Of a stretch of 43,641 bases of DNA, positions 299 to 43,471 are shown in pieces. The DNA is taken from NCBI GenBank assembly GCA_902788275.1, contig CADAJV010000010.1, positions 1 through 43,641 on the forward strand. The letters are read 5' to 3'. A model generated the notes under the pieces. It had not been told where the DNA came from. It saw only the letters and a list, made by a program, of their open reading frames with translations, and searched no databases. The translations under genes and the position numbers were made by a program. Position 1 is the first letter of the stretch. Each line of letters begins with the position of its first letter. Origin of the DNA: an uncultured Bacteroidales bacterium (GTDB lineage Bacteria > Bacteroidota > Bacteroidia > Bacteroidales > Bacteroidaceae).

Positions 299-8710
<8,412 letters not shown>

Positions 8711-8722
8711 AGCTATTCCTGT

Positions 8723-11700
8723 TTACTTGATGATTACCTTTTTACCGTTCACGATTAGGATGCCCTTAGGTAATTGAGAGTTGATAATTGATAGTTGATA
8801 ATTGATTTTGCGGCCTTGGAGGTCGTAGGCTGATTGATCATTACCAACTCCTAACTCCTCACTCCTAACTCCTGACTCATCTATTCCCGTGAGAAGCTGG
8901 GCTTCAGGATTGTTGAGAGCGACTGTTATATCCTGAGCATCTTCATCTACAAGCATGGCGTGGCTGATGGTGCTGCCATCAGCTACGTTGCCTAGAACGG
9001 TCTCACCCGTCGGCAGCGTCTTACCCGATATGTCGTAGATGACGAGATGCAACTGTCCGTCGTCCTGTGTATGCTGACCCACAGCCATACGCGTCGTTTC
9101 CATGAATGAAGGTGATGTCAGCACGATGTCGAGAGCTGCAATGGGCTGAGCAGTGTTGAGTATCAGCTTGCCATCGCTGCAATAGAGGCTGGCTGCATAG
9201 GTGTCGGTTGAAGCCTGCTTCTTGCTGCTCTTAGAGCCTGCACCCGTCGGGATATCGTTGGTGAGCAAGAGGTCAACTTGCTGCACAACATCCAGCACAT
9301 TGATGCCGTTGTCGGCATTCAGGTCGCCGGCAGTGAAATTGTAGCGGTTGTAGTCGCCGTAACCATCACGGAACAGATAGTTGATGGTCTGCTGGAGGTC
9401 GCTGACATTGATTGCCCCGTTGAAGTCCACATCGCCCATGTCGTAGATAAACACGGCATTGAAGTTTGTGGTCTTGTTCTTAGAGTCGGTGTAGCTGCAT
9501 TTTGCAATGTCGCCCGAAGCGCCCTTCCACAGACAATAGCCCGTAATGTCAAAGTCGTTAGAACCGTTGTAGTTTACCGTAAAGGAGCTCCAGTTAGTCT
9601 GGCTCTGCACACCTATTTTAATATTATCCGCGTACGTGCGCGCGATGGGGTTATAGAAGATGATGCTCGGCAACGTGGAGAAGAATCCCGAGTCAGTCAT
9701 GTCGCGCAGATCGACGGTCGCCACGATGTCAGTGATGGTCTGGTTGCTGATGTTCACGCTCTCCAGAGCCTCAGGCAATGCGGGCCACAGGGTGGAGAAG
9801 CGGTTTTCATGCACGTCGAGCGTCTTGAGGGACGGCAGCGCATTGGCGAGTGTCGAGATATTGCCCTCGAGCTTGTTGCGCTGCAAGTCGAGGTATTCGA
9901 GCGTGGGGCTGAGTGTCCTGCCACTGGCGAGCCACTCCTCCACCTTGTCGCTTATATTGCCATAGAACTCCACGTTGGCAAACTCAATCTTCTTAACTTG
10001 CGGTAGGGCGAAGATGCTGACGGGTGTCTCGTTGGCGTTGAGGTTGTAGAGACTGGTGCCGGTGCCGAGATTGATTTCCTGCACATGGCCATTGTTCCAT
10101 TTCACGCCAAAAATGCCGACTGCCGACTCTTTCACTCCTTCAATCAGCTGCCAGTTGGCTTTGGCGCCGCCACCGCCGTTACCCGTCCAAGTAGATTTCT
10201 GCTTTGTAAAGTCGTAGGTCTTGCTGTAGAAGTCCCAAAGCAGGGCGAAGTCCTCGTCGGCAATCTCTTTGACAGTCAAGGTGCCTACCTCATTGAATGT
10301 TGCCGGCAGGTAGTAAGGACCTTCCTCAAACTCCAGCGAGATGGTGTAGTTGCCGCCTGCCGAGGGAAGGGCTGTGGTGCGGTTGCCCTGGGCGTCGGTG
10401 TAGAATACGCGATAGTTGCCCATTCCCTCAAACCAATCTACATAAACAGCCTCGGGACTTCCCGAGAAGTATGTCTCTTTGTTCAGGCAGGTGAGGTGGA
10501 TGAGGTCTTGCGTCAATGTCTGCTTGGTGGACGGATAGCCTATTATGGTGCGGTTGTCCTGTACGTCGGGTGTCCAGGAAGTGCTGTTCTGGTAGCCAGC
10601 CTCCTGCCCTGACGGCACAAGCAGGCTGAATGACGGCTGGTACTGCCAGAAAACATGCTGGGCGGTGGAGGGCATGCTATTGCCCATGATGCCAACAGAC
10701 TTGAAGTTAGTGTTGGAAGAGGTCGCCGTGGTGTGGATAGCATATTGGCCGATGCTGGTCACGGTGGAAGGAATGTTGATATACTGCAGCCGCTCACAAT
10801 AGCCGAAGCAGGCGGTGCCGATGCTCTCCAATTTTTCGGGCAATCTGACATAGCGCAGTCCGCGGCAGTAGTCGAAAGCGTAGTCGCCGATAGATGTCAC
10901 ATTGTCGGGGATGTATATGGTCTGCAATGAGTCGCAGCCGTAGAAGGCATTGTCGCCGATGGAGGTAAGAGTGCCAGGCAACTCGATATTGCGCAGGCGC
11001 GGGCACTCACTGAACATATTAGCGGTTATGGTGGTCAGACCCGTCCGGGGCAGTGTCACTTTCACTAACTGAGCGCAGTGACCGAAGTGGCTGTCGCCGC
11101 TAAAGGTAAGCTGCGGCATATTCTGGGCGAAGGTAATAGTGCGCAGCGAGTCGCATGTCCAGAACGCGGCGTGGCCAAGGCTCTTGATAGTGGACGGGAG
11201 GGTGATGTGCTTGATTCGATCGCACTCGCGGAAAGCGTTCTTGCCTATGGTCTCCAGTCCCTCGGGGAGGGTGAGCGAGGGCAACATGGAATAGTGGTAA
11301 GCTTCCTCGCCGACGGTCTTGACGGTAGAAGGCAGAACGAGGCTGTCGAGGCTGAGGGTGTTATAGAAAGCGTAGGGCTCAACTGTCTGCAGATTAGCGG
11401 GGAGTGTGACTGTGTGCAGCTGCTTGCAGCTCATGCATGTCGCCCTAGGTATGGTGGTAAGGTCATTGGGGAAATGGACTGCGCAGAGTGAGTCGCAGTC
11501 GTCGAAGATATAGCCGCCCAGCGAAAGTAAGGAGAGGGGGTGAAAAGTGACGGCGGTAAGGCGGTTGCAGTTATAGAAAGCGTGCTCGCCAATGGACGTA
11601 AGGCTTTGCGGCAGAAGCACGGGTGCGGCAGAGAGGTCTTTGCTCTCGGCAAAGGTGTAGTTGCCTATAGTCTGCAGGCCGTCGGGGAGCTGCAGGTGAC

Positions 11701-41077: not shown

Positions 41078-42874
41078 TCAAATAGCGGGCTCACCGACCA
41101 CCGACGGCTTCATCTTTTTCTTGTTGTTCTCAATATAGATGGTGCCGCTGGGCAGCGCATCGGGATTTGCTATCGGCCTGCCCTGAATGTCGTAGGCTGT
41201 CTTAGCGGAGGTCTCGGCTCCGGCCTCCTCGCTCCCTGCCGCCTTGATAGCCGCAGGTGCCTCAATAAGTTCCAGCGTCATGCGGTCCATGTCGGGAGCC
41301 CAATCAGTGTTATTATATAGGCGCACCACGTTTTCACCCGGCTCAAGCTCAATCTCGCAATCCACAGAGGAAGGTTTGTCCCAATTACCGTTGTTGACGG
41401 TGAAGGTCTTGACAAACTTACCGTTGACATCAACACTGAACTTACGCTGCTGACCCGTGCAGTAGTAGATGGTCATCTTATACTTGCCGCCCTCGCGGCT
41501 CCACACGTTCTGCCACTGCATGTCGTTCTCCGGACGACTGCCAAGCCAGCCCACCTTATATTTGCCCGAGCACCCGTCGCTGCTACTGAAATTGGCAGCA
41601 CTCAGTCCACTCTCGTGGAACTGCGACAGAAAGGCAGTCTCGGCCTCATAATTGGTGCGCTCAATACGCTCCTGGGCGTCCAAACGGAACACGCGCGTGG
41701 CATGGGCAGGAATCTTCTGCTTGTAACTACCCTCATATTCCTGCATAAGGTCCATGCCGTAAGTTATCGAGCGAATCTTCACCTTGCCGCCAAGTTCCAA
41801 CTTATCAAACTCCATTGTATATTCCACCTGGCTGTCAGTGGAGTTGTAAACGGCTGCCACACGCATGGTATCATAAGCACTTATCACGTCACGCACAAGC
41901 AAATAGACACCGTCCTTTTCGTCCACCACATAGGCCTGCTTATAGAGCGTGTCCTGATTGATGGCAATCAGCTCGGTGTTAGTCAGCAGCTTGAGGGCAT
42001 TGGTCTTGATGGTGGCCAGGTCACAGCCTATCAACAGCGGTGAATTCATTATGCACCACATGGAGAAATGGGTGCGGTCTTCCTCGGTACTCATACCGCG
42101 ACCCACCTCCAGCATATCCATATCGTTGTAATGGCCCTTGCGGCAGAAGGCCGACAGGGGCAAGTTGGTCTTGATGATACCCTTCACACTCTCCCATGCG
42201 CAATAAATGTCACCAGTAGTACGCCAAGAGCCCGCACGGCCGTAGGCCCAAGTGCCAGGATAAGACCATCGGCAGATATTAAAGCGTAGCGAGTCACGCC
42301 CTGTCTCGCGGGCAATCTTCTCGAAAGCATCGAGCGACAGACCGTAAAGCACGCGGTCGTTGAGAGTCTTGTCCTTATCCTGCAGCTGCATGCCGCCGCA
42401 GAAGTCCACCTTGATAAAGTCGAAGCCCAGGTCGCCGAACCACCACTTCATGTCCTGATCCTGATGGTCATACATGCCCGAGCCGATGCCCCAGGGGTCG
42501 CCGCTGCCCTGCGAGCCGCAGGTGTTGTAACCCACGTCAGAATAGATGCCAGCCCTCAGTCCCTTAGAGTGAATATAGTCCACCACGTCCTTCAGACCGT
42601 TAGGAAAACGCGTTGGATGAGTAAGGAGAGCACCTGTTTCGGGATCACGCTTACCGAAATAGCCGTCGTCAATATTAATATAACGGTAGCCGACATCAAG
42701 CAGCCCCTTCTTTACCATGTTATCGGCCTGCACCTTAATCAACTTATCGCTTATGTTAATACCATAAGTGTTCCATGAGCTCCACCCCATCGTGGGCCCG
42801 TCCTTAGTGGTCTGCCCTGATGCCACAACACCCAGGCAAAGCGCAACACAGGAAAGAAAAAATCTTGTCTTCAT
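41078..42874 (-). CDS. GH27 alpha-galactosidase with C-terminal carbohydrate-binding-like domain
   Basis: A 598-aa secreted enzyme with a signal peptide (VVASGQ). The GH27 catalytic barrel spans about 25-320. It has GWSSWNTYG, the sequence YINIDDGYFG, FDFIKVDFCGG (D157 is the expected nucleophile) and HYNDMDMLEVG with the acid/base aspartate at 251-253. A C-terminal antiparallel beta domain follows (about 320-400), then a CBM35/CBM6-like domain (405-540). The tail AYDIQGRP...LPSGTIYIENNKKK resembles a type IX sorting tail but carries about ten extra residues after it. It removes terminal alpha-galactose from galactosides such as raffinose-type sugars or galactomannan. It is the first gene of an operon whose leader contains 42-bp repeats. 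Confidence 0.94.
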   Translation of the reverse strand: MKTRFFLSCVALCLGVVASGQTTKDGPTMGWSSWNTYGINISDKLIKVQADNMVKKGLLDVGYRYINIDDGYFGKRDPETGALLTHPTRFPNGLKDVVDYIHSKGLRAGIYSDVGYNTCGSQGSGDPWGIGSGMYDHQDQDMKWWFGDLGFDFIKVDFCGGMQLQDKDKTLNDRVLYGLSLDAFEKIARETGRDSLRFNICRWSYPGTWAYGRAGSWRTTGDIYCAWESVKGIIKTNLPLSAFCRKGHYNDMDMLEVGRGMSTEEDRTHFSMWCIMNSPLLIGCDLATIKTNALKLLTNTELIAINQDTLYKQAYVVDEKDGVYLLVRDVISAYDTMRVAAVYNSTDSQVEYTMEFDKLELGGKVKIRSITYGMDLMQEYEGSYKQKIPAHATRVFRLDAQERIERTNYEAETAFLSQFHESGLSAANFSSSDGCSGKYKVGWLGSRPENDMQWQNVWSREGGKYKMTIYYCTGQQRKFSVDVNGKFVKTFTVNNGNWDKPSSVDCEIELEPGENVVRLYNNTDWAPDMDRMTLELIEAPAAIKAAGSEEAGAETSAKTAYDIQGRPIANPDALPSGTIYIENNKKKMKPSVVGEPAI

Positions 42875-42905
42875 TATCTTGAGAGTTTATTTCTTTAACA
42901 TCAGC

Positions 42906-43039
42906 ACTTTCTCCGTTAGTATCAATACTTTATCAGCCAGTATCGACACTTTCTCCGTTAGTATCAATACATTATCAGCTAGTATCGACACTTTCTCCGT
43001 TAGTATCAATACTTTATCAGCTAGTATCGACACTTTCTC
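42906..43039. repeat. Array i: three 42-bp repeats (alternating 21-bp halves) upstream of the alpha-galactosidase gene
   Basis: Full 42-bp units start at 42906, 42948 and 42990, with a partial unit from 43032. Each is made of two 21-bp halves sharing AGTATC and (A/C)ACTTT but differing elsewhere, so the two types alternate. Copies differ at very few positions, so this is the youngest array. It ends 31 bp before the start codon and lies downstream of the likely promoter, so it would be in the 5' leader of the mRNA. Confidence 0.92.
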
Positions 43040-43041
43040 TG

Positions 43042-43075
43042 CAAAGATACAACATTTTTTTATAACGCCTACAAA
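43042..43075 (-). promoter_or_regulatory. Putative promoter of the alpha-galactosidase operon
   Basis: On the minus strand TTTG (43072-43075), a 22-bp spacer and TATCTTTG (43042-43049) fit the TTTG / TAnnTTTG pattern with a slightly long spacer. Transcription would start near 43035, giving a leader of about 160 nt containing all of repeat array i. Confidence 0.6.
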
Positions 43076-43094
43076 ACAACCCCATGATAAACTC

Positions 43095-43192
43095 TTTACT
43101 CGCCTTGAACAGAAATTTAATCGCGTGAAAACACATCTTAATCGCCTAGAGACGACATCAAGACGCGTAGAGCCACGAACTAAAGGCGAGCT
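43095..43192. repeat. Array ii: degenerate 21-bp repeats of the TTAATCGCG type
   Basis: Units begin at 43095 (TTTACTCGCC), 43116 (TTTAATCGCG), 43137 (CTTAATCGCC), 43158 (TCAAGACGCG) and 43179 (ACTAAAGGCG). The spacing is exactly 21 bp while the sequence has diverged. The TAATCGCG core is the same as in the left-edge array at 185-289. Confidence 0.82.
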
Positions 43193-43339
43193 CACGCGAA
43201 AATTCCTTAGAAATCTTAAAAAATTCATTATAAGTTTTTGAAAATTCCTAAGCAATTTTTGAAAACTCCTTAAGAATTTTGAATAATTCCTTAGGAATTT
43301 TTTATTATTCCTTAAGAATTTTTGAAAATTCCTAAGGAA
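43193..43339. repeat. Array iii: 21-bp repeats of the GAAAATTCCTTAGGAA type
   Basis: Seven units run from 43193 to 43339; the last five (starts 43235, 43256, 43277, 43298, 43319) are close copies. Each contains ATTCCT(T/A)A(A/G)GAA or a close variant, itself partly palindromic. The unit is again exactly 21 bp, but the sequence is unrelated to array i. Confidence 0.88.
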
Positions 43340-43345
43340 TTATTA

Positions 43346-43471
43346 CAGCTTGACGCTATTAGATTACGACTCTGCGCAATAAACGCACAGCTTGGCACGA
43401 TAAAATCACAGTTCGACGCGTTTAAATCACAATTCGCCGCGATAAAAATACGGGAGGACACAATAAAAACA
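43346..43471. repeat. Array iv: six 21-bp degenerate repeats
   Basis: Units start at 43346, 43367, 43388, 43409, 43430 and 43451, making exactly 126 bp. Most share CA(G/A)(C/T)T(T/C)G-x-CGCG or CACG followed by ATAAAA(T/A). A short plus-strand ORF reads through with an AIxxQLxTIKSQF-like 7-residue pattern, but its start and context do not support a gene. Confidence 0.85.

What the first reader, a model, noticed from the sequence alone, without database searches (positions are those of the whole stretch)
42906..43471. Four unrelated tandem-repeat families, all with a 21-bp unit, stacked upstream of one gene
The 570 bp before the alpha-galactosidase gene is a mosaic of arrays whose sequences differ but whose unit is exactly 21 bp in every case (starts given in the features). 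A conserved length without a conserved sequence suggests something selects or generates the period itself: two helical turns of DNA (2 x 10.5 bp), or seven codons. Both strands can be read as 7-residue heptads (minus: ILTEKVSILADKV; plus: SINTLSASIDTFS), so decayed coiled-coil genes are an alternative. I know of no described system that fits.
Basis: partly seen in the sequence, partly recalled or inferred. Interest (0 to 1): 0.82.

Follow-up and report, generated by a model that had tools for sequence, protein, structure and literature searches.

The report
Phased binding-site arrays for HU-like proteins
Beside a sugar-cutting gene of an uncultured gut bacterium lies a stack of DNA sites repeated every 21 letters; the evidence suggests that such stacks, scattered over these genomes, are landing strips for DNA-bending proteins of the HU type, each protein with its own site.

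Summary
The 21-bp periodicity is real. Arrays 2-3-4 are best read as one element: seven 21-bp palindrome units (AATTC-CTWAG-GAATT) between two arms. At least eight such loci exist in this genome. Core units vary independently between and within loci, yet their spacing is 21 bp throughout, with no indel beside 134 substitutions (about 10 expected). That points to selected sites rather than fresh repeats. One of these loci lies directly upstream of a HU-HIG gene (PF18291: HU domain plus winged helix), and a second core class lies upstream of a paralogue. In 8 genomes, phased palindrome arrays sit upstream of HU-HIG genes more often than of other genes (13 of 64 against 4 of 398). Of 23 palindromes read there, 8 recur elsewhere in their own genome, scarcely ever in others; one gives 198 tandem pairs in its genome and none in 11 others. 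Best reading: cooperative binding arrays of lineage-specific HU-HIG proteins. The pairing of protein and site is well supported; binding and function are inferred. Array 1 is a private palindrome array in the alpha-galactosidase leader, partner unknown.

The parts
42898..43045 (-). Array 1: about seven 21-bp units (a 42-bp higher-order repeat), six of them with a clear palindrome AGTRTYGATACT; lies in the presumed 5' leader of the alpha-galactosidase mRNA. Private to this locus.
   Evidence: in 12 genomes the tandem pattern hits only this place of G000, apart from one isolated 2-3-mismatch hit each in G004 and G023, which equals the control rate (one backward-control hit in G012); absent from sister species G016
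43042..43049 (-). Putative promoter -7 box TATCTTTG of the alpha-galactosidase gene (Bacteroidetes TAnnTTTG; motif recalled, not from a call)
   Evidence: sequence; lies in the 43032-43099 block that is 84% identical in G016
43085..43197 (.). Array 2: left arm of the element, degenerate 21-bp units; its inner end resembles the boundary motif seen at the other loci (about AATCTAAACGCGNGCTCC)
43198..43344 (.). Array 3: core of the element, seven 21-bp units round the palindrome AATTC-CTWAG-GAATT (class A1)
   Evidence: same core at seven other loci of the genome
43345..43470 (.). Array 4: right arm, of the type that at the other loci is the reverse complement of the left arm
41078..42874 (-). 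alpha-galactosidase gene downstream of the arrays (Melibiase_2, PF16499, E 1e-43)

Best explanation
The core of the element (43198-43344) is an array of seven dyad-symmetric sites, two helical turns apart, for a dimeric HU-HIG protein (HU domain plus C-terminal winged helix). The likely partner in this genome is the gene at G000:C3:23648, whose own upstream region carries the same array. Shown: the arrays, their exact spacing, independent drift of units, eight loci, adjacency to HU-HIG genes, and genome-specific recurrence of some HU-HIG-upstream palindromes. Inferred: the wings read the half-sites, the HU bodies bend or wrap the DNA so that neighbouring dimers cooperate on one face, the arrays in front of HU-HIG genes autoregulate them, and the dispersed arrays act as nucleoid nodes or silencing/insulating sites. 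The arms (arrays 2, 4) are probably boundary or accessory sites that grow by unit duplication. Array 1 has the same syntax (promoter, then phased palindromes) but no identified partner.
For: A1 core: 7 units in 7 of 8 loci (8 in L007); unit identity between loci 0.733 at the same index, 0.730 at different indices, 0.754 within a locus. Spacing 21 in 48 of 50 neighbour distances, the other two (10 and 11) being one 21-bp step split by an extra overlapping hit in the window; other classes 17 of 17 and 10 of 10 at 21; 43 of 44, 6 of 6 and 18 of 18 at 22. 134 substitutions over 41 interior units without an indel, against 8 indels per 106 substitutions in a dispersed repeat: Poisson 4e-5. T7 and A9 of the palindrome invariant in 41 of 41 units; no covariation between half-sites. 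HU-HIG genes directly behind A1 (L002) and A2 (L217) arrays. Period 20-23 arrays (or double) upstream of 26 of 64 HU-HIG genes against 44 of 398 controls (Fisher p 5e-8). Sequence-blind tandem-palindrome score at threshold 17: 13 of 64 against 4 of 398, shuffled 0 of 64, p 3e-9; at 18, 6 against 2, p 1e-4; at 19, 2 against 0, p 0.02. Cognate recurrence: 23 HU-HIG-upstream motifs give 17 loci in their own genome, 5 in 161 foreign cells, 0 in shuffles; G005 motif 198 tandem pairs, 0 in 11 other genomes; G012 motif 57, 0 in 11 others. Similar proteins tend to have similar palindromes (Mantel r 0.48, p 0.0002, 25 non-redundant). Palindrome kept, with 4, 3, 6 and 5 units, in four orthologues of one HU-HIG. 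G007, whose only hits are weak ones of 21-33 bits, shows no 21/22-bp TRF array in 12 kb of intergenic DNA. Model of L238: HU fold plus a winged-helix-like domain.
Against: No binding was measured. 15 of 23 HU-HIG palindromes have no second locus in the sampled stretches, so many may be plain operators. 38 of 64 HU-HIG genes show no such TRF array, and only 2 of 22 genes coding 185 aa or more pass the palindrome score at 18. Only 2 of the 14 G000 element loci examined lie beside a HU-HIG gene (several have no readable neighbour on one side). The orthologous element in sister G016 has a changed inner palindrome (AWTWT for CTWAG) although the HU parts are very alike; that G016 gene is cut short or chimeric, so its wing could not be compared. 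Two pairs of fairly similar proteins have dissimilar palindromes (L284/L268, 51% and similarity 0.00; L279/L273, 65% and 0.31). G007 still shows weak lag-21 and lag-42 signals (z 3.8). In G012 the dispersed copies share unit order, as for a mobile element. Motifs were read by eye; A1, A2 and the G012 motif were first seen in dispersed arrays. The arms carry 21-bp repeats with no known partner.
Confidence: 0.75

Rival explanations
1. Mobile minisatellite-bearing MITEs of the BrickBuilt kind, spread by a transposase; the tandem units are replication slippage inside them, without host function.
For: G012 copies share unit order, and several show ends TGATTTTTGAGCCT...AGGCTCAAAAATCA by eye; the elements are modular with inverted arms; several contigs begin in such repeats; in G016 the alpha-galactosidase upstream region holds a different dispersed repeat.
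Against: A1 units show no memory of unit index and hardly any of locus, which copying would leave; spacing is exact despite divergence; the G005 sites have varied spacers; palindromes match HU-HIG upstream arrays. It may still explain how arrays are seeded.
Confidence: 0.15
2. Neutral persistence of a period: unit-wise duplication keeps 21 bp once an array exists; nothing selects it.
For: Outer arms and array 1 are locally homogenised.
Against: Core units are not recent duplicates but keep spacing without indels; 21-22-bp TRF arrays have an indel to mismatch ratio of 0.063 against 0.207 for other periods of 12-60 (overlapping TRF rows not merged); different HU-HIG genes have different palindromes at 21-23 bp.
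Confidence: 0.08
3. RNA-level hairpins: bidirectional terminators or structured leaders.
For: Units are palindromes with T-runs; in G000 8 of 14 classifiable arrays (in 6 gaps) lie between convergent genes against 16 of 88 background gaps, and 3 of 4 in G005 against 4 of 16.
Against: Half-sites do not covary; in G016, G011, G012, G020 and G023 arrays lie mostly between genes of other orientations; no Rfam match in the window and only tRNAs in three further loci.
Confidence: 0.05
4. Decayed or live coiled-coil genes read as heptads.
For: 21 bp is seven codons and open frames cross the arrays.
Against: Related core units are 22 bp in G012; array 1 is absent in G016; palindrome constraint.
Confidence: 0.02

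Closest known systems
BrickBuilt, 23-bp minisatellite MITE of Porphyromonas gingivalis (PMC4596501; abstract, passages and section 5 seen)
   Same: Intergenic, dispersed (19 loci), tandem unit of fixed length near two helical turns, conserved and variable positions within the unit, flanking leader/tail. Its table places BrickBuilt_14, the shortest (84 nt), between a minus-strand gene and a plus-strand DNA-binding protein gene (PF00216), i.e. upstream of a HU-family gene as here.
   Different: 23 bp; one sequence family; described as a MITE with IS5-type inverted ends; the HU-family neighbour is listed but the parts I saw draw no link; the unit palindrome (TATGA-NN-TCATA across the unit junction) is my reading of its consensus.
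HU-HIG proteins (Pfam PF18291; expansion in Bacteroidetes described by Burroughs and colleagues 2017, recalled, paper not held)
   Same: The proteins coded behind the arrays are over the curated cut-off of this family.
   Different: I know of no DNA sites assigned to them; searches listed none. One paper that names a HU-HIG protein (PMC11035120, one passage seen) only lists it in a gene table.
Phased operator arrays and chromosome-site systems (Lrp-type arrays, ParB/parS, MatP/matS; recalled)
   Same: Dimer-binding palindromes, some in helical phase, dispersed over a chromosome.
   Different: Here the site sequence is private to each species while array design and protein family stay.
BOX and REP/REPIN elements (recalled)
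   Same: Modular, palindromic, intergenic, dispersed.
   Different: No strict 21-22-bp phased multi-unit core.

Membership tests
BrickBuilt-type MITE | tandem unit of 23 bp | tested here: not met
   units are 21 bp in the window and at the A loci counted
BrickBuilt-type MITE | defined terminal inverted repeats resembling an IS | tested here: inconclusive
   A1 elements have inverted arms and a boundary motif, but I found no defined outer ends; no comparison with IS elements was made
BrickBuilt-type MITE | intergenic and dispersed | tested here: met
   eight A1 loci, none inside a long gene apart from array-spanning frames
HU-HIG (PF18291), the protein behind A1 and A2 | profile match over the curated cut-off | tested here: met
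   63.6 and 68.9 bits against 26.2; the cut-off alone is weak, since ordinary HU of control genomes also passes it
HU-HIG (PF18291), the protein behind A1 and A2 | HU fold plus an extra domain (here winged helix) | tested here: met
   model of L238, pLDDT 85.5, pTM 0.55; Foldseek 4fmr and HU/IHF chains, low-scoring CRP/FNR and IclR matches; TrmB and HTH_11 matches just under cut-off in two relatives
Operator/binding array of a dimeric protein | dyad symmetry with position-specific constraint | tested here: met
Operator/binding array of a dimeric protein | bound by the protein | not testable with these tools
   needs EMSA, DAP-seq or ChIP
Structured RNA / terminator | compensatory changes in the stem | tested here: not met
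   complementary cells equal or fall just below independence at all seven pairs
Coding heptad repeat | unit length a multiple of three, frame conserved | tested here: not met
   22-bp related units; array 1 absent from G016

The most novel reading that the evidence does not exclude
HU-HIG paralogues are species-specific chromosome-structuring proteins. Each has a private palindromic address written in phased arrays over the chromosome (in G005 at least 38 loci, with 12 same-contig gaps of 7-27 kb), and address and protein are rewired together between congeneric species. The window's element is one such node beside a polysaccharide gene.
Probability: 0.35. Interest if true: 0.92.

Novelty: new variant of a known kind. 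Interest (0 to 1): 0.8.

Why it matters
Bacteroidetes carry many HU-like proteins of the HU-HIG type without DNA targets known to me. If these arrays are their sites, the targets can be read from sequence, protein by protein, and tested directly. It would also explain a puzzling class of bacterial minisatellites (21-23 bp, any sequence, fixed length) and suggest that the nucleoid of gut Bacteroidales is organised by fast-changing, sequence-specific HU proteins.

Tried and rejected
Genus-wide unit length: the first surveys suggested 21 bp in this genus and 22 bp in others. Rejected as stated: G016 and G012 hold both 21- and 22-bp arrays; the length goes with the site class.

RNA hairpin and terminator: no covariation, no Rfam family in the window; some excess between convergent genes in G000 and G005 only. 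Coding heptads: rejected. Dispersal by copying as the whole story: rejected for A1, accepted in part for G012.

Array 1 partner: no second locus, so no HU-HIG could be assigned. Literature: eight searches listed nothing linking HU-HIG to repeats; BrickBuilt was the only close paper. PMC4596501: abstract, passages and section 5 seen. PMC5771137: passages. PMC11035120: one passage.

Rows left out: in the HU-HIG census 64 hits were used. Left out were six hits over 34 bits (G021:C57 at a contig edge, G021:C76 twice, G016:C63, G023:1139317, G023:2829134) and the weaker ones, taken to be ordinary HU/IHF; one weaker hit (G011:C46:45603, 23.6 bits) was kept. The 26 of 64 was counted by hand from the printout; one of the 26 (L288) lies in predicted coding sequence, one (L250) has period 20. 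L298 and L284 proteins are cut by the fetched stretch. The score was read at three thresholds; the headline uses the lowest.

Full report
OBSERVATION. Array 1 (42898-43045) is a 42-bp repeat of two 21-bp halves; arrays 2 and 4 are degenerate, array 4 being visible to autocorrelation only. The period is a property of the genome: of 81 TRF arrays in 439 kb, 34 have period 21 (contig starts, the window and one chosen stretch), and intergenic lag-21 identity stands out from lags 20 and 22.

ONE ELEMENT, EIGHT LOCI. A BLAST of the region against its own genome listed seven further loci, each with the plan left arm, core, right arm. The core is built of AATTC-CTWAG-GAATT palindromes. Over the 8 loci the right arm resembles the reverse complement of the left (mean best unit identity 0.66, against 0.51 direct and 0.50 shuffled); in the window alone the difference is small (0.59, 0.55, 0.53). 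A boundary motif, about AATCTAAACGCGNGCTCC, can be recognised by eye at most of the 16 arm-core junctions, in inverted orientation on the two sides. So arrays 2, 3 and 4 are best read as one element and array 1 as a separate thing.

THE CORE LOOKS LIKE SELECTED SITES. Seven of eight loci have exactly seven units, L007 has eight, and palindrome scores fall from 11-15 of 15 inside to 1-4 just outside. Units at the same index in different loci are no more alike than units at different indices (0.733 against 0.730), and units of one locus hardly more (0.754). Thus neither recent tandem duplication nor recent dispersal explains the likeness. Yet neighbour spacing is 21 bp: 48 of 50 distances, the remaining 10 and 11 being one step split by an extra hit. 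In 41 interior units there are 134 departures from consensus (centre base left out) and no indel; a dispersed repeat of the same genomes shows 8 indels per 106 substitutions, so about 10 would be expected (P 4e-5; rough, since that yardstick is itself an assumption). The bases T7 and A9 never vary; half-sites vary independently, which fits two protein subunits reading two half-sites and not an RNA stem.

CORE CLASSES. Other loci have the same design with another inner palindrome: AASTT at five loci counted and at C57; AGWCT at C34, two to three units; AWTWT at the G016 orthologue of L002, again with seven units at 21 bp; a 22-bp version in G012.

THE HU-HIG LINK. I looked at the neighbours of 15 such loci, 14 of them in G000. 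L002 (class CTWAG), its G016 orthologue L010, and L217 (class AASTT) lie directly upstream of a gene matching HU-HIG, PF18291 (63.6, 50.9 and 68.9 bits; cut-off 26.2); the other 12 do not, or have no readable neighbour. I then took 64 HU-HIG genes in eight genomes. TRF arrays of 20-23 bp (or double) lie within 420 bp upstream of 26 of 64, against 44 of 398 control genes with a noncoding upstream region (p 5e-8). The controls are high in this array-rich genus (G016: 11 of 30), so I used a score that ignores sequence and asks for three phased palindromes: at threshold 17, 13 of 64 against 4 of 398, and 0 of 64 shuffled (p 3e-9); at 18, 6 against 2 (p 1e-4); at 19, 2 against 0 (p 0.02). By eye more genes carry such arrays or a single palindrome; many, above all in G023, carry none. 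The palindromes differ from gene to gene; in several G021 genes they follow a promoter-like TAnnTTTG box (motif recalled), the place of an operator.

COGNATE RECURRENCE. If a palindrome is the site of the protein coded behind it, it should recur in that genome only. Of 23 motifs read upstream of HU-HIG genes, 8 recur as tandem pairs elsewhere in the sampled part of their own genome (17 loci), 15 do not; in 161 foreign motif-genome cells there are 5 loci, all in G000 and apparently due to likeness to its A classes; shuffled sequence gave none. Whole genomes: the motif of the single strong HU-HIG gene of G005 occurs as 198 tandem pairs at 21 bp in G005 and not once in 11 other genomes or in the backward control. 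Only the first places were listed; the 38 loci among them have 12 same-contig gaps of 7-27 kb, mean 14.5 kb, an upper estimate, since places with a mismatch were not listed. The G012 motif occurs 57 times at 22 bp and not in 11 other genomes, but those copies share unit order, so in G012 the element has been copied about. Similar HU-HIG proteins tend to have similar palindromes (Mantel r 0.48, p 0.0002, 25 genes; motifs read by eye), with exceptions (L284/L268, L279/L273). In four species the orthologues of one HU-HIG keep TTCTTARYTAAGAA at 22 bp with 4, 3, 6 and 5 units. G007, same genus, 99% complete, has only weak hits of 21-33 bits and no 21/22-bp TRF array in 12 kb of intergenic DNA sampled, though lags 21 and 42 are slightly raised (z 3.8).

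THE PROTEIN. An AlphaFold model of the L238 protein (196 aa, pLDDT 85.5, pTM 0.55) has a HU-like domain and a C-terminal winged-helix-like domain; Foldseek finds Bacteroides vulgatus BVU_2165 (4fmr), many HU/IHF chains, and low-scoring CRP/FNR and IclR matches. Two relatives match TrmB and HTH_11 just under the cut-off in that domain. The profile of ten such proteins finds HU and IHF chains in the PDB.

THE WINDOW'S LOCUS. In the sister species G016 (alpha-galactosidase 91% identical) the stretches 42822-42897 and 43032-43099 are conserved at 84%. Between them G016 has 32 bp where the window has 134 bp of array 1, and beyond 43099 homology stops: G016 has another dispersed repeat there. So array 1 and the element are recent or fast-changing here. 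Array 1 lies between a conserved promoter-like box and the start codon, is palindromic (AGTRTYGATACT), and is private to this locus.

MECHANISM. Most likely, HU-HIG dimers bind each palindrome through their winged helices; at 21 bp the sites face the same side of the helix, so dimers can touch and their HU bodies can bend the DNA in one direction, giving a cooperative wrapped array. At their own genes this would give autoregulation; elsewhere, nodes that silence, insulate or fold the chromosome. The first half rests on the data above by inference; the last step is open (I put about 0.35 on a chromosome-structuring role).

KNOWN WORK. BrickBuilt of P. gingivalis is the nearest described thing. 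Its table lists its shortest copy just upstream of a HU-family gene, which fits this reading and which the parts I saw do not remark on. Full-text searches for HU-HIG, PF18291 and related terms listed no paper on its DNA sites (one passage opened); the library holds open-licence papers only, and the paper on HU superfamily expansion that I recall is not held.

Noticed in passing
L116:3461-3812; L101:19-366; L066:10-267; L070:2-307; L063:2216-2532: A dispersed repeat of about 350 bp or more ('repeat B') shared by G016 and G000, often at contig ends, with its own 21-bp arrays (AAACTAAAAGCCTTGAAACG) next to a constant part of about 190 bp; no Rfam match to it in L116, L063 or L222.
   Followed up: partly
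window 4502-4577, 6459-6573, 8771-8806, 8846-8878: Heptanucleotide arrays (AGTTGAG, TTGAGAG and others); period 7 is also common in the sampled rest of the genome.
   Followed up: no
L010:1848-2514: The G016 HU-HIG frame continues into a glycosyl hydrolase 65 match (PF14498), at a contig end: probably a chimeric contig, possibly a real fusion.
   Followed up: no
L104:7515-7591, L167:15461-15545 and similar G012 loci: G012 22-bp arrays sit between inverted sequences like TGATTTTTGAGCCT / AGGCTCAAAAATCA (by eye), as in a MITE: a site array that seems to have become mobile.
   Followed up: partly
L096:17341-17560 and L261 upstream: Arm-like repeats contain TTTAATCGCG, the half-site of the palindrome upstream of the G016 HU-HIG gene L261; the arms may belong to a second HU-HIG paralogue.
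   Followed up: no
L071:1964-4041, L068:1039-1269, L101:5713-5873: 69-bp repeats (23 codons), perhaps leucine-rich repeat surface proteins; not checked.
   Followed up: no
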